This document shows, piece after piece, positions 1,352 through 47,489 of a DNA stretch of 64,000 bases; position 1 is the stretch's first letter; each line of letters starts with the position of its first letter. The stretch lies in NCBI GenBank assembly GCA_013343275.1, contig CP046106.1:310001-374000 (forward strand). The letters run 5' to 3'. Both the position numbers and the translations under genes were made by a program. The DNA is from Candidatus Nanohaloarchaea archaeon (GTDB lineage Archaea; Nanohalarchaeota; Nanosalinia; Nanosalinales; Nanosalinaceae). The notes under the pieces are model-generated. The model was given only the letters and a program-made list of their open reading frames with translations. It made no database searches and was not told where the DNA came from.

Positions 1352-2152
1352 TTATGAGAATCTGTCGATGCTTTTCTGCTTTTTAGGGAGCTTGTCTCCC
1401 TTTACGAATCTGTATGCTCTTTCCAGCCAGTAGAGATCTTCTGAAAACTCAAGGTTATCTTCTTTTCTTTGCAGATATTTCACTCTGACACTGAAGGATA
1501 GATATGGCATCAGCATTCCCTGGCTGGGGTTTATCTGCAGCATGACCTCGATATCTACAGGATATCCAGAATGTCTATCTGAATAGTCTAGTTTCAGAAG
1601 TTGTTGTTCTACATCGTAGTTTTTGTCAATGTCTTCTCTTATGTTCTCCATCACACTCGAGTAGGATAGCTTGTCAATCTCTACAGAGCCATTGTTTTTG
1701 TTGTCCTGTAGGCGGACAATTTGCGTTTGTATTCCTTGTTCTTCTGCAAGTTCTTCTCTGTTTGATAGTTTATTCTCTGAGAATCGGAATATGTCATAGT
1801 CGAAAGGTGTTTCATCTTCAAACAGTTCTGTGAATAAGTCTTGGACGGATTTTATTTTGAAAGTTCTATCTCTGGCTATTAGTATTACATTATCCTCAGG
1901 CACTGGCTTGAATAGAAATGTGCTCTTAGTCTTTCTTTCCGTCTCTGAGTCTTCATCTACTCCTAGCATTCTGTTGTATCGTGAAGTTGGTCTAGTTGTT
2001 TTCTTTATCCATGTTAGCGTGAAGCAGTCGTCTTCTTTCTCATTCAAATAGAAGTTATCCTCTTTTTCTTCTGCCTCTCTCTTTATTGAGGACAGCATAC
2101 TATCTATTTCTTCAGTCTTTACTGGAACGGAGTATACATTCAAGCGTTTCAT
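1352..2152 (-). CDS. Unrecognised 266-aa protein paired with the P-loop/winged-helix gene
   Basis: I do not recognise this protein. It is hydrophilic, with no signal peptide, membrane segment or cysteine cluster. It looks like a mixed alpha/beta soluble protein, and its C-terminal half (about 190-240) contains alternating strands (PVDIEVMLQI, LSFSVRVKYL) that suggest a beta sheet. Its start overlaps the stop of the upstream gene by 4 nt (ATGA), so the two are probably translationally coupled. Its A+T-rich composition and position between MazG/McrB and the CBASS operon suggest an accessory or defence role, which is inference from context only. Confidence 0.75.
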   Translation of the reverse strand: MKRLNVYSVPVKTEEIDSMLSSIKREAEEKEDNFYLNEKEDDCFTLTWIKKTTRPTSRYNRMLGVDEDSETERKTKSTFLFKPVPEDNVILIARDRTFKIKSVQDLFTELFEDETPFDYDIFRFSENKLSNREELAEEQGIQTQIVRLQDNKNNGSVEIDKLSYSSVMENIREDIDKNYDVEQQLLKLDYSDRHSGYPVDIEVMLQINPSQGMLMPYLSFSVRVKYLQRKEDNLEFSEDLYWLERAYRFVKGDKLPKKQKSIDRFS

Positions 2153-3090
2153 TGGGTTGAGAACAAGTATGATTCTACTAACAGTTTTTGGAACGGATTT
2201 TGTAGCCTGTATTTCACTTTTCTGCCCTCTTGTTTTTTACTTATCAGTTCTAAATCTCTTAATTTTGATAAATGTGTCGAGACTGTAGATCTTTTGAGCT
2301 CACTATTGTAGGTAGAATTAATCATTTCTGATATAGTTGGCGCATCAAAGCTTGTTACTCTGTATCTACCAAAATTATTCCTCCACCCTGATGTTAACAC
2401 TTCTAAGATGTTTTCTCTGGTTTCAGATACCTCATCTAAGTCTACTAGGTTATATTCCTTGAAAAATTCTTCTGGCGTATAAATTGATTCCTTTATGATT
2501 TTCTTCAACAGCGGATTATAGTAAAAATGTTTATCTTCCAAGGTTTTTGGCGAGCTAATTACCTCTTCGGCATATTTTTCTAAGTAGAATTGGTGCCCAA
2601 ATTTCAGTCCTAAAAATTCCGAGTAATTCCAGGACTGTAGAATTTTATTTTCCTTGCCGGAGAAATTTTCTATGAGATCTAATACCTTGGTTAGTTCCTC
2701 TTTCCTGAGCAATGAGCAATTCATAATTACGAAGAAGTCGAATTCCTCTTCTCTTTCGAGAATGTTTTCTGGATAGATGATGAAATCTGAGTCTTTAGGC
2801 AAGTTATCGCTACCCTCTTCATTGCGTTTAATTAGTTTCAAGTCGATAAATCCTGCTTTCTCGCCTTCAAGCGCTTCAGAGATTGCTTTATTTTTTCCAA
2901 AACCTTCTGGAGCTGTTATGATGCTCTTTCTGCCACTTTCCAGAGAAGCAATCATCTTTTTTCTGAAAAGCTCTATTTCTTCCTCGTGAAAGTCAGCAGT
3001 GTAGCTATTGTCATAGAATTTCTCCGCATTTTGAGGCACACCATCACTGATCTTGGTATCCAATGCCTCGTAGTCTGTACCGGGTGGCAT
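2149..3090 (-). CDS. Degenerate P-loop ATPase with C-terminal winged helix
   Basis: A 313-aa protein. Residues 59-69 (TAPEGFGKNKA) look like a Walker A loop with Asn where Ser/Thr is usual, and no clear Walker B DE pair follows, so ATP hydrolysis may be weak or lost. The C-terminal ~80 residues form a winged helix of ArsR/TrmB style (STVSTHLSKLRDLELI, then a basic wing). This domain order matches the archaeal ATPase family (PF01637-like) that carries a C-terminal winged helix. It is the first gene of a two-gene unit and is divergent from the CBASS operon across a 128-bp gap with repeats, so it might bind that region. Function is not established. Confidence 0.6.
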   Translation of the reverse strand: MPPGTDYEALDTKISDGVPQNAEKFYDNSYTADFHEEEIELFRKKMIASLESGRKSIITAPEGFGKNKAISEALEGEKAGFIDLKLIKRNEEGSDNLPKDSDFIIYPENILEREEEFDFFVIMNCSLLRKEELTKVLDLIENFSGKENKILQSWNYSEFLGLKFGHQFYLEKYAEEVISSPKTLEDKHFYYNPLLKKIIKESIYTPEEFFKEYNLVDLDEVSETRENILEVLTSGWRNNFGRYRVTSFDAPTISEMINSTYNSELKRSTVSTHLSKLRDLELISKKQEGRKVKYRLQNPFQKLLVESYLFSTQ

Positions 3091-3125
3091 CTGAAATTAA
3101 TTTATCCCCTCTAGTTTAAAATCTT

Positions 3126-3182
3126 TTAGTCAGATTAGCCAACTTAGTCAGATAAATCTGATTTCCAAAAAGTTTTTAAATA
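3126..3182. promoter_or_regulatory. Divergent promoter/operator region with direct repeats, palindrome and TATA box
   Basis: The decamer TTAGTCAGAT occurs at 3126-3135 and again at 3144-3153, 18 bp apart. The second copy runs into a short palindrome (CAGATAAATCTG, 3149-3160). An A+T-rich TATA-like element (GTTTTTAAATA) follows at about 3172-3182, placing a start site near 3205 for the rightward CBASS genes. The repeats are well placed to bind a regulator between this operon and the divergent winged-helix gene ending at 3090. Confidence 0.5.
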
Positions 3183-3218
3183 GAAAGGAGTAGTTAGTTG
3201 GTAGGGGCGGAGGAGAAG

Positions 3219-4043
3219 ATGAAATCACGAGACAAAAAAGTTGAAGGAGTTGTCCGTAGAGTACAACCTCAAACTAAGCATGAGGAGTTCATGAGGCACG
3301 GAAACAATCAAGATACAGTCATGATGAAGATTCCTGATGTTGAAACTTTATTGAATGCTAGAGGTCAAACCAGAAAGAGGTATTTCCCTGGTAAATATAC
3401 TGTGATAAGCAGCGGCATAATCAACGATGAGGATCTATCAAAGCTGAGATGGACTCGAGAACTTCTAGCTGTGAAATGTTTCGGCCCTGAGTACCATATT
3501 CCGATAGATTATCCATACTATGGAGACATGCCTGAGAAGGAGAGAAAAGCTAATCTTCGAAAGATGATGAGCGGCGCCAAGTGGATGGCACAACAACTTA
3601 GTAATACAGAAACGGAAATCATCCCTCTGATTAAAGGATACTCCCCTGAAGAGCGTTCGATCTGCTATGAAGCTATTCGTAAAATCAAACCAGAGTACTG
3701 TGCAATATATGGTTCTCAGTACTTCGGGGGTTCGATGGGTAATGGCATCAATAAGCTAAACCGGCACATTAGAGAGATTATATCAGAAGTAGGTATAGAA
3801 AACATCTTACTTATCGGTCCACAGTACAAGAATGGCGTGGAAAAACTCCCTCCAGAAGTGAAAGCGACTGCCGGCCAAAGAAGCTGGATAAAAAAGTCAA
3901 AATTAAGGGAAGTTCCGATTCCTGTAGCTCACAGCAGGTATCTAGACTGGAGGTCTGAAATAGAATCAGCTTTAGGTCAAGGACAGGCAACGATAAAATC
4001 AGCAATTAGACAGAGTAGCAAGGTGGCCGCCCCTGGGAGCTAG
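3219..4043 (+). CDS. TGT-fold protein resembling Cap10 of type IV CBASS
   Basis: This protein of about 274 aa is read as a shortened tRNA-guanine transglycosylase-like TIM barrel. In order it shows a strand ending in IPIDYP (D97 from the ATG), a strand with PLIKGYSPEE, a glycine-rich turn IYGSQYFGG, a strand ILLIGPQ and a late segment AGQRSW. The last corresponds to the region where TGT and DpdA enzymes carry the catalytic Asp; here no Asp is present. Published type IV CBASS loci encode such a TGT-like ancillary protein (Cap10) next to the CD-NTase. The ATG at 3219 is preferred over a TTG at 3198 because GGAGGAG lies just before it. It is 22 nt ahead of the CD-NTase gene. Confidence 0.55.
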   Translation: MKSRDKKVEGVVRRVQPQTKHEEFMRHGNNQDTVMMKIPDVETLLNARGQTRKRYFPGKYTVISSGIINDEDLSKLRWTRELLAVKCFGPEYHIPIDYPYYGDMPEKERKANLRKMMSGAKWMAQQLSNTETEIIPLIKGYSPEERSICYEAIRKIKPEYCAIYGSQYFGGSMGNGINKLNRHIREIISEVGIENILLIGPQYKNGVEKLPPEVKATAGQRSWIKKSKLREVPIPVAHSRYLDWRSEIESALGQGQATIKSAIRQSSKVAAPGS

Positions 4044-4065
4044 AAGCAGTGAACCTGATGATAAT

Positions 4066-5103
4066 GTGAGACCTAGTAGTGGAGGTAGGCCTCCAGTTGA
4101 TCAGTCACAAACTAGTGTACCAGATCACCAGGATGAAGAAAGAGAACTGGACGAGTCGCATCGCGACTACACAGAAGACGCACAGATTACAGATAGGCAG
4201 AAAAAGGAAATGCATGAAAGACGTGAAAGAGTGGTACAGCATCTTAAGGAAGGAGGCCTACAGATTGAAGATGATCATATTTTTGGTTCTGTAATGCAAG
4301 GGACTATGACAGGACCTCTAGATCAAGATTCTGATGTTGATGTGATGATCGTTCTTGACGCAGATGAACATCGAGAATGGGCTGAAAGCGAAAACGGTCC
4401 TAGAAATGCTTTGAAAGCTGTAAAGAGGCGTCTTGAAAAGAAATATCCTAATCAAGAAGTAAATGTAGACAGAAATGTTGTGGCTGTGAAGTTCAGCGAT
4501 TTTACTGTAGAAGTAGCTCCAGCATTCAGGTATAGTGATGTTCGTGATCCAGAGCATCCATCAGATCCTGTAACGTTGGGAGGTATGGAATTTCCTGCGA
4601 GACCAATAGATGCTGATGATCCTGAGAAAGATGGTTATGTCATTCCCGATACCTATGGAGAAACTAAATGGACGGGGACAAACCCCAGGAAATTTCAGAG
4701 TATGTATAATGCTGTTAATAGAAACCACGGCGGCGATTTACAGAGAGTTGCAGTAGCAGCAAAGAAAGTTAACGAGCAGAACGGCAACCACATCAGCTCC
4801 TACCACGCAGTAATGATGGCTTACAAGTATTTCGAAAAAGATGCTCCTCCCAATGCATCAACGCAGCAGCATATGAACAATTTCTTTAGGAATCTACCCC
4901 GTTATTTGGATGAAGAAACACGAGAACCAGTATATCAGGAAAGACTGGATAAGGGTTTAGATGAAGAGGAGAGAAGAAAAGCGATAAAGATGGCTTACCA
5001 AAAGAGCAGTAAAATTGAAGAAGCTGAGCGATTACAGAAGGAAGGTAAATATGAGAAGGCAAAAGAAAAGTATGAAGAGGTCTATGGAAATGAATTCAAC
5101 TAG
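4066..5103 (+). CDS. CD-NTase (cyclic oligonucleotide synthase of a CBASS operon)
   Basis: A 345-aa nucleotidyltransferase of the cGAS/DncV-like class. Diagnostic residues are the GS at 74-75 in FGSVMQGT, the metal-binding pair D90/D92 in DSDVDVMIV, and the third carboxylate E149 in FTVEVAPAF. On infection such enzymes make cyclic di- or trinucleotides that activate the effector. The helical C-terminal part (about 190-345) fits the family's second lobe. The start is a GTG with no strong ribosome site; the frame is open upstream to 3997 without an ATG, so the N-terminus is uncertain. The first ~45 residues are a polar, disordered-looking tail. It is followed after 11 nt by the SLATT effector gene. 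Confidence 0.85.
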   Translation: MRPSSGGRPPVDQSQTSVPDHQDEERELDESHRDYTEDAQITDRQKKEMHERRERVVQHLKEGGLQIEDDHIFGSVMQGTMTGPLDQDSDVDVMIVLDADEHREWAESENGPRNALKAVKRRLEKKYPNQEVNVDRNVVAVKFSDFTVEVAPAFRYSDVRDPEHPSDPVTLGGMEFPARPIDADDPEKDGYVIPDTYGETKWTGTNPRKFQSMYNAVNRNHGGDLQRVAVAAKKVNEQNGNHISSYHAVMMAYKYFEKDAPPNASTQQHMNNFFRNLPRYLDEETREPVYQERLDKGLDEEERRKAIKMAYQKSSKIEEAERLQKEGKYEKAKEKYEEVYGNEFN

Positions 5104-5114
5104 AGGTGTTCTTA

Positions 5115-5687
5115 GTGTCAGAAGATGATTTTGATTACGAAGCTCATGAAAGACTTCGTGAAAGAGTTGCGAATAAAGCTGATAGTGCACTATGGGCTTA
5201 CAAATCACATTACGAAGCAGCTGATTGGTACAGCAGTTTTAGTAAGAAAATTAGCTGGATTACTACAGCTACAGCTGGAATACTAACTGTATCTCTTATT
5301 TGGAGGGTTCTTCCAGACTATGCGCTAGTGCTCTTAGCTATTGCAACAGCTGCACTATCAGGCTACAAAACAGCAGCAAAACCTGAGAAAAAATCCTACG
5401 AACACTACAATGCTGGAGATGCCTATCATCGGCTCTTTATTGACTTCAATGATTTCACCAAATTACAATTAGCAGATGAAAGTTATGGCCTCGAGAACAT
5501 GAAAGAGAGATTTTGGGAATTATCTGATCGCCATCAGAACCTAAACGAAGAAATGCCGAATATTGCAAGCAAATGGTACGAAAGACTTCATGAAGAAGAG
5601 ATAAGATCACAGACACAAACAACTGAAGAAACTAAAAAAGCTTTAACAGGCTGTGCTCGGCTGAAAAATACTGAGGATCAAAAGTGA
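5115..5687 (+). CDS. SLATT-domain two-TM effector of the CBASS operon
   Basis: A 190-aa membrane protein with a helical N-terminus (AHERLRERVANKADSAL), two transmembrane helices at about 47-65 and 69-83 separated by a tight turn, then a long charged cytoplasmic helix bundle containing YEHYNAGDAYHRL. This is the SLATT layout (SMODS- and SLOG-associated two-TM effector). SLATT proteins are predicted to form pores or damage the membrane once activated by the nucleotide signal, causing abortive infection. The GTG at 5115 is chosen over a GTG at 5106 because GAGGTG sits 6 nt before it. It directly follows the CD-NTase gene, as expected for sensor and effector. Confidence 0.8.
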   Translation: MSEDDFDYEAHERLRERVANKADSALWAYKSHYEAADWYSSFSKKISWITTATAGILTVSLIWRVLPDYALVLLAIATAALSGYKTAAKPEKKSYEHYNAGDAYHRLFIDFNDFTKLQLADESYGLENMKERFWELSDRHQNLNEEMPNIASKWYERLHEEEIRSQTQTTEETKKALTGCARLKNTEDQK

Positions 5688-5852: not shown

Positions 5853-6416
5853 ATGATTCCTTTTGAGGAGGAGGCCTCTCTTAATGAGACTGAGGAGTAT
5901 GTGGAGAGGCTTCTTCAGGCCCGGTGGGATAATGTGGTTCGTTCGACTCCTGGTGTGAAGAGTGATTTAGAGGGCCGTTTTCCGGAGCTGTCGGAGACTA
6001 TCAGCAGAAGGATCAGGGAGGATTCGGGTGGCGAGTTTTCGAATGTTTTCCGGCCTGGTGTGCCTGATTTCCTGGTTTTTGATGACAGCGGAGAGTATCT
6101 CTTTGTCGAGGTTAAGTCGAGCGATGACGGCCTGAGGAGTACGCAGTTGCGCTGGCTGCGGGATTTCCAGGGTGTTAACATGGAGATCTGGTTCGCTGAC
6201 AGCAAAGATATCGAGAAGCTGGATGCGGATGATTTCGGTTCCTACGGTTTCAGCGATGTAAAGAAGAATAATTCAAGCTACGAGTTAGAGGAGAGAAACA
6301 GTAATCTGTGGGCCCAGATTCCTGATGAGCTAGCCGCAATACTCGGCCTCGATGAAGAGAGCAGTGTTGAGTGGCGTTTGAAGAGCGGTGATGAGTTGAT
6401 ACTGGATAACAGGTAA
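5853..6416 (+). CDS. VRR-NUC nuclease fused to an AbrB-like domain
   Basis: A 187-aa protein. Residues 68-105 carry the PD-(D/E)xK core of VRR-NUC nucleases: GVPDF (D72), FVEVKSS (E86, K88) and a glutamine at 98 in STQLRW. VRR-NUC enzymes are structure-selective nucleases of repair (FAN1) and of phage and restriction systems. The last ~35 residues (LWAQIPDELAAILGL, then WRLKSGDELIL) resemble a swapped-hairpin AbrB/SpoVT DNA-binding unit. It lies 165 bp beyond the CBASS operon on the same strand with its own A+T-rich upstream region. Whether it belongs to the defence module is unknown. Confidence 0.75.
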   Translation: MIPFEEEASLNETEEYVERLLQARWDNVVRSTPGVKSDLEGRFPELSETISRRIREDSGGEFSNVFRPGVPDFLVFDDSGEYLFVEVKSSDDGLRSTQLRWLRDFQGVNMEIWFADSKDIEKLDADDFGSYGFSDVKKNNSSYELEERNSNLWAQIPDELAAILGLDEESSVEWRLKSGDELILDNR

Positions 6417-6419
6417 ATT

Positions 6420-7094
6420 CTAGAACTCTCTTTCTACGTCGACGTGCTGGAATCCGTTTTCCTCCAGTCTCTGCTCTACTTCCTGTGCCAGGGCCTCTGG
6501 TTCTTCTGCGTCGTCGTTGATGTAGACTGCTGTGGTGTATGAGAAAGGTACTTCTCCAGGTATGTCGCTGTCGTGCCGTGAGTTCTCAGGTACGAGCAGT
6601 TCGAATGTTACGTCGGAGCCGAAGTTGGACTGGCTCTTGGTGAAATGTCTGTCGCTGCCGACATGTACGCTGTTGGTTCTTCTGGCGCCCATAGTGGATT
6701 TCCGGACATCGAGGTCTGCAAGGCCGTAGTCCTGGAGGAATCCTCCGATCTCTTCTGCACCTTTCTCTTCAAGGCCTTCCTGTACTGCGTCAGGGCCGTG
6801 CTCTCTGAGCTCGTCCTCGTTCTCTATTATGTACTCTCCGAGATTGATCTTCCCTTCGTCTACAGCTTCGATGTCCCGTAATGCGTATGTCTTGAGTTCG
6901 TCGAGGAGGTCGTCCTCCATAGGGTTGTAGGCCTCTTCCTCCATGATGCCGAGTGCGCTGTCTGCTGTTGTCGAGTGGTAGACTTTCTCGTTGCCGAATT
7001 CGTTGTATTCGCTGTCAGGCCAGTGCACTGCCTCACGGCTCAGATCTGCAAGTCTATCGGATGAATGCAGGTTTGGGTCGGGTTCGAAGCTCAT
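6420..7094 (-). CDS. Unknown acidic protein, possibly ADP-ribosyltransferase-like
   Basis: A 224-aa, very acidic soluble protein. I do not recognise it firmly. The motif VYHSTTADSALGIMEEE at about residues 38-54 resembles the first strand of ADP-ribosyltransferase-like folds (YHxT followed by a helix with an Ile-rich end). The later segment NSVHVGSDRHF, then DVTFELLVP, could be the next core strands. No catalytic Glu can be assigned with confidence. The gene is 14 nt downstream of the lyase-type gene at 7109-7996 on the same strand, so the two are probably co-transcribed and may act together. Confidence 0.55.
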   Translation of the reverse strand: MSFEPDPNLHSSDRLADLSREAVHWPDSEYNEFGNEKVYHSTTADSALGIMEEEAYNPMEDDLLDELKTYALRDIEAVDEGKINLGEYIIENEDELREHGPDAVQEGLEEKGAEEIGGFLQDYGLADLDVRKSTMGARRTNSVHVGSDRHFTKSQSNFGSDVTFELLVPENSRHDSDIPGEVPFSYTTAVYINDDAEEPEALAQEVEQRLEENGFQHVDVEREF

Positions 7095-7108: not shown

Positions 7109-7996
7109 CTAGATCGGTTGCTGTAGGCCTTCTATCTCATCGCCTTCGTATGATCCTCCTACTACGTCTCCTTCTTTGCCTATCAGGCCGTTGCTGGAGA
7201 CCGTGTAGCTTCCTCCGGTTTCCTGGACTACTTCTGCGTCGGGGCCGAAGCTTCCGTAACGGAAATGTATTCTGCTGTCGCCGTACTGTTTTTCCTCTCC
7301 GTTGTGGCCGTCAAGGGAAGGCCCTCCGTTAAGTTCGACGTCTGAAGCTCTCAGAAGCCCCTCCAGGTCTGATACTACTTCTGATGCGTTTTCGAGGTTG
7401 GCGTGGATTGAGGCTGTGTTGAAGTTTTCTGCTCCGGCTCTGAACTGCTGTCGGCCGTGCTGCATGATGTTGTCTTTCTTGTAGTCGTCGACTTCCGGGT
7501 AGATGGTAATGAATTTTCCTTCCTGGCCGTCGCTCATTCCGGAGAGTTTCTCTGCGTCCTCAACTACTTTGTGGGCTACTCCTTCGTCCTGTAGGTAAGG
7601 TAGAACTGTTTCGGCTACGTCTCTTGCCTCTTCGGGATCTGCTGATACTCTTAGCTTCCAGCCCTGGTGTGGCAGATCGTTCTGGTGTACTGTTTTGTGG
7701 TCCTGGAAGACTCTGTCGGCGAAGTATTCCTCGTCTCCGGTCGTCAGGTCGTACCATTCCTGGTCTACGAGGTCTCTCATCCAGTGGTTTCCTTCCCTGT
7801 CCTCTACTCTTGGTACAGGTCTTCCTCCAGGCATGTCGCTTGGATAGACGCCTTCCTCTTTCATCATATCTATTTCCTGCTGTACTCTCTGCTCTATTTC
7901 GTCTCCGGAGTATTTTGTGCCTGATCCGGCGCTTACGAATACTTCGTCGCCGTCCAGGTTTTCCACCAGATCCTGCCAGTCATCAATCATACTCAT
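7109..7996 (-). CDS. Standalone lanthipeptide-synthetase (LanKC/LanL) lyase-type domain
   Basis: About 295 aa from the ATG at 7996, which has GGAGTGG just upstream; an earlier in-frame start would add 16 unlikely residues. Residues 113-251 follow the N-terminal domain of class III/IV lanthionine synthetases: QGWKLRVSADPEEA, GVAHKV, GKFITIYP (160-167), GP before a polar loop, and HFRYGSFG (245-251). In those enzymes this OspF/SpvC-like domain removes phosphate from phospho-Ser/Thr. The kinase and cyclase domains are absent. The usual K-x-H pair appears as K114-x-R116, so the general-acid His is replaced, while K143 at the expected base position remains. Its activity is therefore uncertain. It heads a two-gene unit. 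Confidence 0.65.
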   Translation of the reverse strand: MSMIDDWQDLVENLDGDEVFVSAGSGTKYSGDEIEQRVQQEIDMMKEEGVYPSDMPGGRPVPRVEDREGNHWMRDLVDQEWYDLTTGDEEYFADRVFQDHKTVHQNDLPHQGWKLRVSADPEEARDVAETVLPYLQDEGVAHKVVEDAEKLSGMSDGQEGKFITIYPEVDDYKKDNIMQHGRQQFRAGAENFNTASIHANLENASEVVSDLEGLLRASDVELNGGPSLDGHNGEEKQYGDSRIHFRYGSFGPDAEVVQETGGSYTVSSNGLIGKEGDVVGGSYEGDEIEGLQQPI

Positions 7997-8055
7997 TATA
8001 TACCACTCCAACCTTTTATTCTTTTTGTTATCTACCAGTAACAAACAATAGAGTG

Positions 8056-42178: not shown

Positions 42179-44920
42179 CTATTCATCAAGGATATCTGTC
42201 ACAGGCATTACCTCTATACTCCGGACCTTGTCCTCCGATACACAGTAAATATAGGCCTCAACCGGTTTTTCCCTTGCATCCTCTATAGCTGATGCGTACA
42301 GACTGAGCTGCTTCTGGTATTTCTCGGGTTCTTTATCGCCGATCTTGAAGTCGTAGATGCGGATAACCTCTTCCTTTTCGAGAAGCAGATCTATTCTACC
42401 CTTGATAACTCCTCCATCTGCTGGCAGCCTTATATCTACTTCACACTGTTTTCTACCATCCAGGCCTTCTATAAACTGTTCTATATTTTCTTCGTAGTCT
42501 GTGCTGCTACTTGCATCTCCTTGTATCTTTTCTTCGGCGAACTCGTGTAGATCACGGCCTTTCTCTCGGCCATCTCCTTCTTCCAGATCCAGTAGACTGG
42601 TGACAGCAGTAGCTTCGCTGCCTTCATACTCTGGCAGCTCTGGGTCGAAGAAGCTGATATCGGAGGTATTTTCCTCCTGTTCTATAGGCTTCTCGCTGTA
42701 ATACTCTTCCTCAAGAGGCATTTTTTCGAAGAAAGTTGATTTGCGGCCTTCTTCAGCGGTTATATAGAGCTCTTCTTCGGCTCTGGTGATTCCTACGTAC
42801 ATGAGCCTTCTTTCCTCGTCGTAGCCTTTGGAAAGCGTCTGGAAAAGTATTTCAGATCTCCAGTTATCGAAGGAGAATCCTTTTTCCTCATTGTATTTTT
42901 TACGAGTTCTCAGGCCGATAACGTCTCTGTATTCGATCGGTATGTAGTTTCCGTTGGTTGATGGGAAGCGGCTCTGGTTGACATCAGATATAAAGACGAC
43001 AGGGTATTCCAGGCCTTTAGCGGCGTGTATTGTCTGTATCTTTACCACATTTTCCTGCATCGAGTTATCGATCTCATAGATTTCTCCGTCCTCGATGTTA
43101 TCCTCTACAAACTGGATTAACTGGCCTAGGTTCATGTAGGAGCTCTCGAAGGTATCAGTCAGGACCTCTACAATTCGTTCTGTAAACCCGTTGCTGACTT
43201 CGTATCTCGTGAATACTTTTTCAGCAAACTGACCTATGTCGGAAGTGGTATCCAACTCCTCCCGGAACTCCTCCATATCCTTCGGATAATTTTCGTTATC
43301 AAGTATCTCTTTAGCCTCATCTAACGTGTATCCTGCGTTTTCCAGCACCACGGCCCATCCTCTATCCGAGTTAGAGTTGGAGATCCTCATCCACGCAAGC
43401 AGCATAACTGCAGGGTTCGTTTTGAAGAGTTCTACTCCTCCCTCATAAGCTACAGGCACTCCTCTGTTCTGTGCTTCTTTCTGAAGTTCCAGTCCGAAGT
43501 TACGGGTGCGTGTAAGTACCGCTATATCCCCGTACTCTCTTCCTCCCTCCTGAACTCTTCCCTGTATCTTAGCGAGGACATTTTCAGCCTCTTTCTCTGT
43601 CAGAAGCTTCTCTATACGGCCTTCTTCATCTTTCTGTGACTCCAGTGACGTGATCTTGGACCTTATTTCTTCCTGCGGAAGGTTCTCATAACCGGTTGCG
43701 GGGAGTGTAAGGGCCTCCTCTGATAGGTCAAGTATTTCCTGCGTCGACCTGTAGTTCTTCTTCAGCCTTATTTCCTCGACGTTTTCAATCCTGAAATCTA
43801 CTCTCCGCTGGCCTTCGTTCAGTTCTTCACGGTACTTCTCGAGTCTTCTCTGGAATCTTTGAATGTTCTCAACGTTTGCGTACTGAAAGCTGTAGATACT
43901 CTGTTTCCAGTCCCCTACAGCACAGATGTTTGGTTCATCAGCGAGAAGCAGCGTGAGCTTGAACTGTATCTCATTGGTATCCTGGAACTCATCTATCATC
44001 AGGTATTTGAATGACAGCTTGTCTCTCAAAGCCTTTTTCTCTGTCAGGAGCACGTAGGAGAACGCCAGGAGGAAGTTAAAGTTGAGGTAGTTCTTTCTGA
44101 GACAATACTGCAGGTAAGAGAAGTAGATATTATGTACAAACTCTTTAAGCTTCTCTCTGCCCTCATTAAAGGCCTTCTCCCCAAAGTCTCTTCTGACTTG
44201 CTTTGTGCCGTACCCTCCTCTGACCTCTTCTTCGCTGGGAGCATCTTCATCGAAATCCTTGTACTTCATGCTGTAAAGCCTGCTTCTGAGCTCCGACTGT
44301 TTCTTCCCGTTACCACTATTTCTTGGTTTGTTAACTTCCTTGAATATTTTCTTGAACTCCTGGAAGTCGCCATCAATGTATTTCTCCGAGTTGCCGAACC
44401 ATCCCTCTTTCTCTGGCACAATTCCTTTTGCGGCCAGGTTTTTCAACAGGCTCAGAATCTGTGAGTAGTCATCAATTATCTGGTAGAACTCGTGGTACTG
44501 TGAATTCTCATCTATAAACAGGTTCATGAAGCTGTCGAACTCCTGTTTCTCTCGAACCTCGCTCTCCATAAGATTCAGGCTCTGAGTTATGTCCTCCTCT
44601 AGGCCCAGTATTCGTGGAGTGTCGAATCCATGGTTTCGAAGTATCTTCTTTGCGAAGCTGTGGAAAGTTGAAATCGGTGCATCGTAGATCTTGGAGGCCT
44701 TGACATCTGTCCTCTCAATTATTCTTTCCTTCATCTGGTCTGCAGCGTTGTTGGTGAATGTAGCCAGCAGTATATCGCCAGGTTCTACGCCGTCATCCAG
44801 TATCTCTGCGTACCGCCTGGTTATAGTGAATGTCTTCCCTGTACCCGCCCCTGCGTCAACCAGGTAGATTCCATCCGTGTTGTCTATCAGTTTCTGCTGT
44901 TGTTTATTCGGGTCAGTCAT
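42179..44920 (-). CDS. UvrD/AddA-like helicase-nuclease
   Basis: A 913-aa superfamily 1 helicase: Walker A AGAGTGKT (23-30), motif Ia region TFTNNAADQMKER, motif II MIDEFQDTN, motif III VGDWKQSIYSF, motif V TIHAAKGLEYPVVF, and motif VI YVGITRAEEEL. A C-terminal PD-(D/E)xK nuclease is visible (GRIDLLLEKEEVIRIYDFKIG, then QLSLYA). This is the AddA/RecB layout for double-strand-break end resection. It lies 8 nt after the AddB-like gene on the same strand, so the two proteins probably form a complex. Confidence 0.9.
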   Translation of the reverse strand: MTDPNKQQQKLIDNTDGIYLVDAGAGTGKTFTITRRYAEILDDGVEPGDILLATFTNNAADQMKERIIERTDVKASKIYDAPISTFHSFAKKILRNHGFDTPRILGLEEDITQSLNLMESEVREKQEFDSFMNLFIDENSQYHEFYQIIDDYSQILSLLKNLAAKGIVPEKEGWFGNSEKYIDGDFQEFKKIFKEVNKPRNSGNGKKQSELRSRLYSMKYKDFDEDAPSEEEVRGGYGTKQVRRDFGEKAFNEGREKLKEFVHNIYFSYLQYCLRKNYLNFNFLLAFSYVLLTEKKALRDKLSFKYLMIDEFQDTNEIQFKLTLLLADEPNICAVGDWKQSIYSFQYANVENIQRFQRRLEKYREELNEGQRRVDFRIENVEEIRLKKNYRSTQEILDLSEEALTLPATGYENLPQEEIRSKITSLESQKDEEGRIEKLLTEKEAENVLAKIQGRVQEGGREYGDIAVLTRTRNFGLELQKEAQNRGVPVAYEGGVELFKTNPAVMLLAWMRISNSNSDRGWAVVLENAGYTLDEAKEILDNENYPKDMEEFREELDTTSDIGQFAEKVFTRYEVSNGFTERIVEVLTDTFESSYMNLGQLIQFVEDNIEDGEIYEIDNSMQENVVKIQTIHAAKGLEYPVVFISDVNQSRFPSTNGNYIPIEYRDVIGLRTRKKYNEEKGFSFDNWRSEILFQTLSKGYDEERRLMYVGITRAEEELYITAEEGRKSTFFEKMPLEEEYYSEKPIEQEENTSDISFFDPELPEYEGSEATAVTSLLDLEEGDGREKGRDLHEFAEEKIQGDASSSTDYEENIEQFIEGLDGRKQCEVDIRLPADGGVIKGRIDLLLEKEEVIRIYDFKIGDKEPEKYQKQLSLYASAIEDAREKPVEAYIYCVSEDKVRSIEVMPVTDILDE

Positions 44921-44927
44921 GCTTGTC

Positions 44928-47489
44928 TCACTCCACTATCATGTCTCGGTAAGGGTTTCTGTCGATATCGTTGTCGCCGACAGGGAACCGTGAACCTTTG
45001 TACTCATTCAGTTCGTCAACTTTCTCCTCAAGGAATTCCTCAAACCTGTCAAGGTCCTCCTTGAAGAAGTTGGTTTTTCTGAACTCTAAAAGCTTTCTCA
45101 AAGCCTTATCTGCTCCTTTCTCCACGTATTTGTAATCTCCGACGTGTTTTTTTGCGTACTTGACGAACTCTCTACCGAATTCGGACTGAACCAGCTTGTC
45201 CTTGTCGTATGGGTAGGGAATCTTGTTATCCTCAAAGAATTTCTGGAAGTTAGGATGGCCCAGCTTTTCGAGGGTTTTCCTCCTGTCGTTTGACTTTGCT
45301 ACTCCTTTGATAAGTTTCTCAAAAACCTCCAGATCCAGTATCTTGTCGTTGAAATCCTTTGGATAGTAAGTTATGGAAACTGTTTTTTCATCCATATCTG
45401 ATTCGGAGTTTATATCCGAGGCCATGTCGCTGAGGAAGTAGAAGTAGGTGAACTTCAGTTTCTGATCCGGCATCTTGTCTCTGAGCTCGCTCAGGTACAT
45501 TATAGGCTGGAAGTCTGGTTTTTCATCGAAAAGTTCGACGTTGGAATCTCTAATTATCTTTTTCCTGCTTCGGCTCCGTGAACTGCTCTTGTAGTCCACC
45601 AGCTCATTTCCGAGGACGAGATCTATCTTTCCTTTTGCACAGATATCTTTATTCTGGAAGGTTAGTTCTGCGAAGTGCTTCTCGACATCCCTGTCAAAGT
45701 ACTCGGCGAAAATATTCTTGCCTGGACCTTCCTCTGGCTCAAGCTCCACGGCCTCAGGGCTATCTCTTGAGTCGATAAAGCTCTCAATATTTCGGATTCC
45801 GATCCTGAACTCTGTTTCAAGCGTCTCCAGCTCGATGTCATCTACGTAAGGCCTTATCTCTTTCTTCATTATCTCCACGAATTCTTCTCTGCCTTTTTCC
45901 TCTACGAATTCAGGAAAGTTTGCGTAGAACTCTGCGAACTCATGGAAAAGATTCCCTTTAACCATGATATCTTTCTCGGTGTCGGCAACAAGTCTTGAGA
46001 AATAGTAGGCTCTCGGGGACTGTACAAACCTGTTCAGAGAGGACTGGCTGAGCAGCTCTACTGTTTCCGGCTCTTCCAGAGAGTCTTCTTTACTGAAGCC
46101 TGATAGCTTGGATTTCTGCGGGAGAGAAAATCTCTCCGTCCTGTGATCTGAAAAACTTTCGAGGCCGCAGAGCTCTGTGAAGTAGAAGCAGGGAGAGATT
46201 TCTTCGTTCATTTCTTTATCCTGGACGAGGTAGTGTTTCTGTTCTCCATTCTGTATCAGGGCCTCGAAGTTCTGTAGGTTCCTTTTTTCTACTTCCTCTC
46301 TGTCGATCCACGATCTCTGATCTACTTCCTGTGTCCATTCCGAGGACATACCTATGTAGAAGACTACAGGACGGTCTATGTATACCGTTGATTTAGGTGA
46401 AGCGAGTAACACGCCGCTGTCTTCCGAGTTCTGTGTAGGATCAAAGGAATCTAGATAGTATTCAAGCCTGGATATACTACCTTCGGTTATACTTTCCTCT
46501 TTTAGGCCTAGGTCTTCCAGCACCTCTTCTATATGGTTCTGCTCGTATCCAAGTAGATCCTGGAATCCTTCGAGAAAGTCCTGGAAATCCATGAAGGAGG
46601 CCACGTTCAGGAAGTCTGTGAACTCGCTTAGCCTGTCGTCCTCCAGTTCTGATACCTTGACCTGGCTTTTGCTGTCGGAGGAATCAATTCCCAGGTGCTG
46701 TACTACCGGCTCCACATCTCGAAGCCTTATCCTGTCTTTTGCCAGCGCTAGCCTTGCCAGTGATATGAAGGTTCTCAGATCTTCCTTTTCGGAGAGTTTC
46801 TCTGTCGAGTTATAGGGTATTTCCTCGGATTTGAACGCAGACTCTATCAGCGACTGGTATCTTGTATCTGAATCCACAACAAGAGCAACGTTTTCCGCAT
46901 TTTCCTTGGATATATTCCTCTTCAAGGCCTCTACTATCTCGCTTGCGGATGAGAAGATATTGAATTTCGGTAGTTCAAACTCTCTGTTCTCAAATATTTC
47001 AACTGTATCGTAATCATCAGGCAGTACTTTCCTGTCGAGCTCGTTGAACTGGTATGGCGCTATCACAGCTACATCTTTATCTTCATCTATATTGGTGCTC
47101 TCTAGCGCTCTGAAGGGGTTGTTTATCTCCTCCAGTATCTTTATTATCTCTTCGGCAGCGTTTCCGGAGAACTGTTCTTCCTCCAGTATGCTGTAAAGGT
47201 TTCCTGTGTTTTTCCAGGATTCAAGTACTGTTTCCAGCATGTATGATGCCTGTTTCCAGGTAAGATCTGTTCTCTCTACTATTTCAAGAAATATCTCTCT
47301 TTTGAAATCCAGGTCGTCCAGTTCTTCATCGAATGCATATCTGCGTGGTGTTTCCGCAAACTCCCCCACTACTGCTTTATCTATCCGTTTGTTCAGGCCT
47401 TCTGCCAGAGGAGCATCAACTGTAAGCACCAGATCGTAGTTTTTGACCTCTTTATACAGTTTTTCAAGGTTTTTCCTATTCCTTATCAT
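44928..47489 (-). CDS. AddB-like nuclease partner
   Basis: An 853-aa protein with an inactive-looking helicase-like N-terminal half (no Walker A) and a C-terminal RecB-family nuclease (LFHEFAEFYANF, then AKGKIDLVLGNELVDYKSSS with the D...E/DxK core). Its cysteines are few, and the iron-staple cysteines of bacterial AddB are not evident. Its N-terminal overlap of 4 nt with the upstream LEA-like gene and the closely following AddA-like gene indicate one transcript. Archaea usually resect with Mre11-Rad50-HerA-NurA, so this pair is less common. Confidence 0.8.
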   Translation of the reverse strand: MIRNRKNLEKLYKEVKNYDLVLTVDAPLAEGLNKRIDKAVVGEFAETPRRYAFDEELDDLDFKREIFLEIVERTDLTWKQASYMLETVLESWKNTGNLYSILEEEQFSGNAAEEIIKILEEINNPFRALESTNIDEDKDVAVIAPYQFNELDRKVLPDDYDTVEIFENREFELPKFNIFSSASEIVEALKRNISKENAENVALVVDSDTRYQSLIESAFKSEEIPYNSTEKLSEKEDLRTFISLARLALAKDRIRLRDVEPVVQHLGIDSSDSKSQVKVSELEDDRLSEFTDFLNVASFMDFQDFLEGFQDLLGYEQNHIEEVLEDLGLKEESITEGSISRLEYYLDSFDPTQNSEDSGVLLASPKSTVYIDRPVVFYIGMSSEWTQEVDQRSWIDREEVEKRNLQNFEALIQNGEQKHYLVQDKEMNEEISPCFYFTELCGLESFSDHRTERFSLPQKSKLSGFSKEDSLEEPETVELLSQSSLNRFVQSPRAYYFSRLVADTEKDIMVKGNLFHEFAEFYANFPEFVEEKGREEFVEIMKKEIRPYVDDIELETLETEFRIGIRNIESFIDSRDSPEAVELEPEEGPGKNIFAEYFDRDVEKHFAELTFQNKDICAKGKIDLVLGNELVDYKSSSRSRSRKKIIRDSNVELFDEKPDFQPIMYLSELRDKMPDQKLKFTYFYFLSDMASDINSESDMDEKTVSITYYPKDFNDKILDLEVFEKLIKGVAKSNDRRKTLEKLGHPNFQKFFEDNKIPYPYDKDKLVQSEFGREFVKYAKKHVGDYKYVEKGADKALRKLLEFRKTNFFKEDLDRFEEFLEEKVDELNEYKGSRFPVGDNDIDRNPYRDMIVE

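What the first reader, a model, noticed from the sequence alone, without database searches (positions are those of the whole stretch)
3219..5687. CBASS anti-viral operon in a probable nanohaloarchaeon: TGT-like protein, CD-NTase, SLATT effector
Three adjacent rightward genes encode a TGT-fold protein, a CD-NTase with an intact catalytic triad (GS, DxD, E) and a two-TM SLATT effector. Published type IV CBASS loci pair a CD-NTase with TGT-like (Cap10) and QueC-like (Cap9) proteins, so this looks like a trimmed type IV system with a SLATT effector. A nucleotide-signal abortive defence in a tiny, probably host-dependent archaeon would be unusual.
Basis: partly seen in the sequence, partly recalled or inferred. 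Interest (0 to 1): 0.85.

Follow-up and report, generated by a model that had tools for sequence, protein, structure and literature searches.

The report
QueC-less CBASS operon in tiny archaeon
A tiny salt-loving archaeon carries a three-gene anti-virus alarm system, apparently imported from haloarchaea, that keeps the tRNA-enzyme-like partner and the protein tail used by 'type IV CBASS' but lacks the tail-modifying enzyme that type IV was shown to need, which suggests this alarm can run on a different switch.

Summary
The three genes are real. They encode a TGT-like protein (PADLOC TGT, E 7e-75), a CD-NTase (PADLOC cyclase, E 1e-106; catalytic residues intact) and a two-TM SLATT effector (E 4e-16). 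It is a CBASS locus. It is not a one-off trimmed type IV system: about 25 haloarchaeal loci have the same TGT>CD-NTase>SLATT layout, and none has Cap9 (QueC) in the operon. The window genome (915,886 bp, one contig) has no detectable QueC or canonical TGT. TGT-like and CD-NTase trees agree on the window's relatives; SLATT is swapped. The low-GC3 block 1352-5687 looks imported; of 28 phylum genomes only this one has the CD-NTase.

Correction: the CD-NTase probably starts at CTG 4033, not GTG 4066. The closest relatives have ATGGG at the aligned position, with the same Shine-Dalgarno and spacing. CTG gives (M)GARSS..., keeping the N-terminal glycine that Cap9 modifies in type IV CBASS. A glycine start is very common downstream of haloarchaeal TGT-like genes (55/66 loci; background 8%), also before non-CBASS partners and in genomes without QueC.

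Best reading: a Cap9-less, Cap10-type CBASS in which the TGT-like protein holds the CD-NTase by its glycine tail. Mechanism untested. New variant of a known kind.

The parts
3219..4043 (+). TGT-like (Cap10-type) protein, 274 aa; TATA-like TTTAAATA at about 3175-3182 upstream
   Evidence: PADLOC TGT E 7e-75; no Pfam TGT match; hhalign to canonical TGTs prob 56%, E 1e-4; no conserved acid in residues 200-224, where the nucleophile would lie
4021..4027 (+). Shine-Dalgarno-like AAGGTGG of the CD-NTase
   Evidence: same position and spacing as GAGGTG in L062 and L059
4033..5103 (+). CD-NTase (SMODS), probable start CTG 4033 giving (M)GARSSEPDD...; GTG 4066 is the alternative
   Evidence: PADLOC cyclase E 1e-106; GS/DxD/E intact; start by alignment with ATGGG of relatives
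4036..4038 (+). Gly2 codon (GGA), candidate N-terminal acceptor residue
   Evidence: MG start in 22/26 CD-NTase loci; acceptor glycine in type IV CBASS per PMC13279940
5115..5687 (+). SLATT two-TM effector, 190 aa (GTG start)
   Evidence: PADLOC 2TM effector E 4e-16; SLATT_4 25.3 bits; start by alignment with L062
2149..3090 (-). divergent P-loop-like plus winged-helix protein, candidate regulator
   Evidence: wHTH matches the wHTH of the gene upstream of TGT in L003/L059 (hhalign prob 82%) and PADLOC Csa3 E 2e-8; same low GC3; link to CBASS inferred
1352..2152 (-). unknown protein overlapping the regulator by 4 bp
   Evidence: same low GC3; a gene in the same position and of like size exists in L003/L004/L059, but no sequence homology was detected
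1352..5687 (.). probable imported block (GC3 0.29-0.41; flanking genes 0.56-0.62)
   Evidence: flanking MazG-like and VRR-NUC genes match family members, the block does not

Best explanation
This is a CBASS operon of a Cap9-less, Cap10(TGT)-type subgroup typical of haloarchaea, acquired by this small archaeon. The CD-NTase makes a cyclic oligonucleotide on infection (inferred from the intact active site). That signal makes the SLATT two-TM protein permeabilise the membrane and stop or kill the cell (inferred from family knowledge). The TGT-like protein is not a tRNA enzyme; it binds the flexible N-terminal Gly tail of the CD-NTase and gates its activity or assembly, as Cap10 binds the tail in type IV CBASS. 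Because neither the operon nor the genome has a detectable QueC, the tail is read unmodified or carries some other modification. Shown here: gene identities, layout, tail conservation, linked descent of TGT-like gene and CD-NTase, no QueC or canonical TGT found. Inferred: every functional step.
For: Family matches. Profile match to CdnD of the solved type IV system and to other solved CD-NTases. About 25 haloarchaeal loci with the same three-gene order and no QueC in the operon. TGT-like and CD-NTase trees put the window with the same relatives at 99-100% support, whereas SLATT is exchanged: TGT and CD-NTase form the co-inherited pair. Possible glycine start after the TGT-like gene in 55/66 loci against about 8% background. 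CTG at the exact place of ATG, with SD kept. No PF06508 or PF01702 in the genome, with positive controls ringing. Eleven of 62 haloarchaea with TGT-like genes have only PP-loop-type cross hits to QueC, four of them with the CD-NTase operon. QueC presence is not significantly higher in TGT-like carriers (50/62) than in others (245/332), Fisher p 0.34. Relatives lie beside BREX (BrxC) and type II CBASS genes.
Against: No activity, signal or expression data. The TGT fold could not be confirmed by structure (pLDDT 47), and no Cap10 in the PDB is hit by sequence. The only solved precedent needs Cap9 and the modification for defence. The CTG start is unusual and not verified by protein data. The haloarchaeal genomes without QueC may be incomplete, and the window genome is put at 96.5% completeness.
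Confidence: 0.58

Rival explanations
1. It works as true type IV CBASS: the CD-NTase glycine is deazaguanylated in trans, by the cell's own chromosomal QueC in haloarchaea and by an unrecognised enzyme or host-derived supply in this cell.
For: The acceptor glycine and flexible tail are conserved. 50 of 62 haloarchaeal carriers have a QueC elsewhere in the genome. Cap9 keeps the canonical QueC active site (PMC13329287).
Against: No QueC or canonical TGT in the window genome; TGT absent in 27 of 28 phylum genomes; 11 haloarchaeal carriers also lack QueC; no association of carriers with QueC.
Confidence: 0.2
2. The locus is an import that is decaying: Cap9 function is unavailable and the CD-NTase start codon has mutated from ATG to CTG, so the alarm is weak or dead.
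For: CTG replaces ATG at the aligned start; long branch and deviant composition of the TGT-like protein in the tree; single occurrence in the phylum.
Against: All three frames are intact and catalytic residues kept; SD and spacing kept; another relative, L087, uses GTG at this place; GC3 of the block differs from that of its relatives as well, suggesting it has not just arrived.
Confidence: 0.15
3. The TGT-like protein acts on nucleic acid (base exchange in tRNA or viral DNA) and only shares an operon with CBASS.
For: Weak profile relation to tRNA-guanine transglycosylases.
Against: No conserved acid where the transglycosylase nucleophile would be, Lys in place of the base-recognising Gln by the alignment, only isolated Cys columns; tight link to a glycine-tailed partner whatever its domain.
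Confidence: 0.05

Closest known systems
Type IV CBASS with Cap9, Cap10 and CdnD (Wassarman et al. 2025, PMC11996544; PDB 9NTN/9NTO)
   Same: CD-NTase related to CdnD (33 bits), TGT-like partner gene, N-terminal Gly tail on the CD-NTase, effector gene in the operon
   Different: No Cap9/QueC in the operon or genome; TGT-like protein not matched to solved Cap10 by sequence; tail is GARSS rather than GGS; CTG start
Haloarchaeal plasmid CBASS of Haloarcula sp. CBA1115, Haloprofundus sp. MHR1 and Salinirubellus salinus (annotated 'CBASS oligonucleotide cyclase')
   Same: Same order TGT-like > CD-NTase > SLATT, no QueC in the operon, MG start of the CD-NTase in MHR1 and Salinirubellus
   Different: Haloarchaeal hosts; ATG starts; about 27-48% protein identity; no description of the QueC-less subgroup found in the held literature
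qatABCD (QatB/QatC, PMC13279940)
   Different: QatC (QueC-like) is present there and no TGT-like protein; no CD-NTase

Membership tests
CBASS | CD-NTase with catalytic residues | tested here: met
   SMODS E 6e-19, PADLOC cyclase E 1e-106, GS/DxD/E conserved
CBASS | adjacent effector gene | tested here: met
   SLATT/2TM effector directly downstream
CBASS | cyclic nucleotide made on infection and effector response | not testable with these tools
   needs biochemistry
Type IV CBASS | TGT-like Cap10 | tested here: met
   PADLOC TGT E 7e-75; direct match to the solved Cap10 not obtained
Type IV CBASS | QueC-like Cap9 | tested here: not met
   none in the operon and no PF06508 match in the genome
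Type IV CBASS | N-terminal glycine acceptor on the CD-NTase | tested here: inconclusive
   present if the start is CTG 4033; present in 22/26 related loci
Type IV CBASS | 7-amido-7-deazaguanine on the CD-NTase N-terminus | not testable with these tools
   needs mass spectrometry
tRNA-guanine transglycosylase (PF01702) | family match and catalytic Asp nucleophile | tested here: not met
   no Pfam match; no conserved acid in residues 200-224
SLATT effector | SLATT profile and two TM segments | tested here: met
   PADLOC 2TM E 4e-16; SLATT_4 25.3 bits, below its cut-off of 27; two hydrophobic segments read directly from the sequence

The most novel reading that the evidence does not exclude
Haloarchaeal TGT-like proteins are a general class of tail readers: each is paired with a partner (CD-NTases of several clades, DsbA-like proteins, small disordered proteins, a 1021-aa protein) whose N-terminus begins with glycine. 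They work without Cap9, and in some cells, including this one, without any 7-deazaguanine chemistry, so the TGT-plus-glycine-tail switch is separable from deazaguanylation.
Probability: 0.35. Interest if true: 0.75.

Novelty: new variant of a known kind. Interest (0 to 1): 0.58.

Why it matters
Type IV CBASS is explained by a nucleobase put on a protein tail by Cap9. It also documents a multi-gene signalling defence in a 0.9-Mb archaeon, where DPANN lineages are reported to favour compact single-gene systems (PMC12988326).

Tried and rejected
AlphaFold of the TGT-like protein with the three sequences allowed gave pLDDT 47, so no fold search was made. Viral-contig scans found no relatives. The genome-contig scan gave only two loci, so the survey used the genome search. 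PDB searches with the TGT-like profile gave only noise. phmmer hits of the CD-NTase to designed repeat proteins are C-terminal helix artefacts. QueC near the TGT-like gene in L012 belongs to a separate, widespread PfkB-QueC gene pair. Weak QueC hits in the phylum look like PP-loop cross matches, mostly inside longer proteins. The idea that the QueC-less form is a local loss was rejected because haloarchaea share it. The upstream unknown gene 1352-2152 could not be tied to its positional counterpart. For some non-CBASS partners an upstream in-frame ATG exists (MFVFMG...), so their glycine may not be N-terminal; the 55/66 figure is an upper count for those, and loci are not independent.

Full report
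What is there. Three plus-strand genes lie at 3219-4043, about 4033-5103 and about 5115-5687. They match PADLOC TGT (E 7.3e-75), PADLOC cyclase (E 1.3e-106; Pfam SMODS E 6e-19) and PADLOC 2TM effector (E 4.2e-16; Pfam SLATT_4 25.3 bits, cut-off 27). In 20 aligned sequences the CD-NTase G85, S86, D101 and D103 never vary, and the third acid is E or D in all. A profile of the family finds solved CD-NTases (6p82, 83 bits) and the CdnD of the solved type IV CBASS (9ntn/9nto, 33 bits).

Where it sits. The window is part of a 915,886-bp single-contig genome, 96.5% complete. The five genes 1352-5687 have GC3 0.29-0.41, while their neighbours have 0.56-0.62. The neighbouring MazG-like and VRR-NUC genes have DNA matches in the same family; the block does not. 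Of 28 genomes of the phylum only this one has the CD-NTase, and of 100 genomes compared only this one has the TGT-like gene. The block is therefore probably imported. The donor is most simply a haloarchaeon, since all relatives with the same layout found here are haloarchaeal, although its GC is lower than theirs.

Relatives. Of 394 Halobacteria genomes, 62 carry a TGT-like gene. In 60 regions fetched around them plus the plasmid loci, about 25 have TGT-like > CD-NTase > SLATT. None has QueC in the operon. QueC occurs within the fetched flanks only in L012 (a separate PfkB-QueC pair), L056 (a 231-aa QueC about 2 kb from the operon, on the other strand) and L074 (broken). TGT-like and CD-NTase trees both put the window with L062, L059 and L065 at 99-100% support, while the SLATT tree groups differently. 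So the TGT-like gene and CD-NTase travel as a pair and the effector is exchanged. L062 has a divergent CARF-wHTH regulator and BrxC near by; L059 has E1-E2-JAB and TIR-SAVED genes of another CBASS.

The start of the CD-NTase. No ATG, GTG or TTG lies in frame between the upstream stop and GTG 4066. Aligned junctions read: window agcAAGGTGgccgccc CTG GGA; L062 ggcGAGGTGatggccc ATG GGT; L059 aacGAGGTGatgatcc ATG GGT. The CTG at 4033 stands exactly where relatives have ATG, with the same SD spacing; GTG 4066 has no comparable SD. Starting there, the protein begins (M)GARSSEPDD. In type IV CBASS the glycine exposed by Met removal is the residue that Cap9 conjugates to 7-deazaguanine (PMC13279940, PMC11996544).

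The glycine tail is general. In 55 of 66 distinct TGT-like loci the next gene can start with Met-Gly at the junction; among CD-NTase loci 22 of 26, and three of the four exceptions are a one-base indel or broken TGT genes. The background in long ORFs of the same regions is 26 of 326. Partners include CD-NTases of more than one PADLOC model, DsbA-like proteins, small disordered MGGRYG proteins and a 1021-aa protein. Loci are related, so the binomial P value is not to be taken literally, and some partners have an upstream in-frame ATG.

No writer. The window genome has no PF06508 and no PF01702 match, while the positive-control genomes ring. Canonical TGT is absent in 27 of 28 phylum genomes; QueC hits there are weak, PP-loop-like matches. 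In haloarchaea QueC is found at E<=1e-30 in 295 of 394 genomes; of the 62 TGT-like carriers 12 lack it at that level, 11 of them entirely apart from PP-loop cross hits, four of these with the CD-NTase operon. Carriers are not enriched for QueC (Fisher p 0.34).

The TGT-like protein. It is remotely related to tRNA-guanine transglycosylases: profile comparison gives probability 56% and E 1e-4, against 1.5% for an unrelated control. In that alignment the base-recognising Gln becomes Lys139 (50/52 Lys), and no conserved acid exists in residues 200-224, where the nucleophile would be. A non-catalytic, binding role is the simplest reading, in line with what is published for Cap10 (PMC11996544). The fold itself could not be confirmed here.

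Mechanism and verdict. Shown: identity, layout, pairing, tail, no writer found. Inferred: signal synthesis, SLATT pore action, tail binding. I call it a Cap9-less, Cap10-type CBASS; it is not filed as type IV because Cap9 was tested and not found. Novelty: new variant of a known kind. No description of this subgroup was found in the held literature, but the key Science paper and Millman 2020 could not be read, so priority is uncertain.

Noticed in passing
window 42179-47489 (-): Two adjacent large genes: UvrD-type helicase with C-terminal PDDEXK_1 (913 aa) and a second PDDEXK_1 protein with a weak UvrD_C match (853 aa), an AddAB-like helicase-nuclease pair.
   Followed up: no
window 7109-8044 (-): Protein with a RamC N-terminal domain (PF25816, 64 bits) next to an unknown protein at 6420-7094.
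   Followed up: no
window 5853-6416 (+): VRR-NUC nuclease-domain gene just downstream of the block; DNA matches in other family members, so it looks native.
   Followed up: partly
L003 5804-5815: Run of seven G after the CD-NTase ATG against six in L004, shifting the frame of the tail: sequencing error or phase variation.
   Followed up: no
L012 1308-3744, L144, L141-L143: Conserved PfkB-QueC gene pair on plasmids of bacteria and haloarchaea, with an 8-oxoguanine-glycosylase-annotated gene near by in one case; possibly another defence system.
   Followed up: partly
L013, L069, L071, L073, L075, L078, L100: TGT-like genes followed by DsbA-like or other partners with a recurring M[FVI]xFMG or M[FVI]xFLG N-terminus; the true start is unclear.
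   Followed up: partly
L007, L010, L005: TGT-like gene followed by a 90-122-aa, probably disordered MGGRYG protein instead of a CD-NTase.
   Followed up: partly
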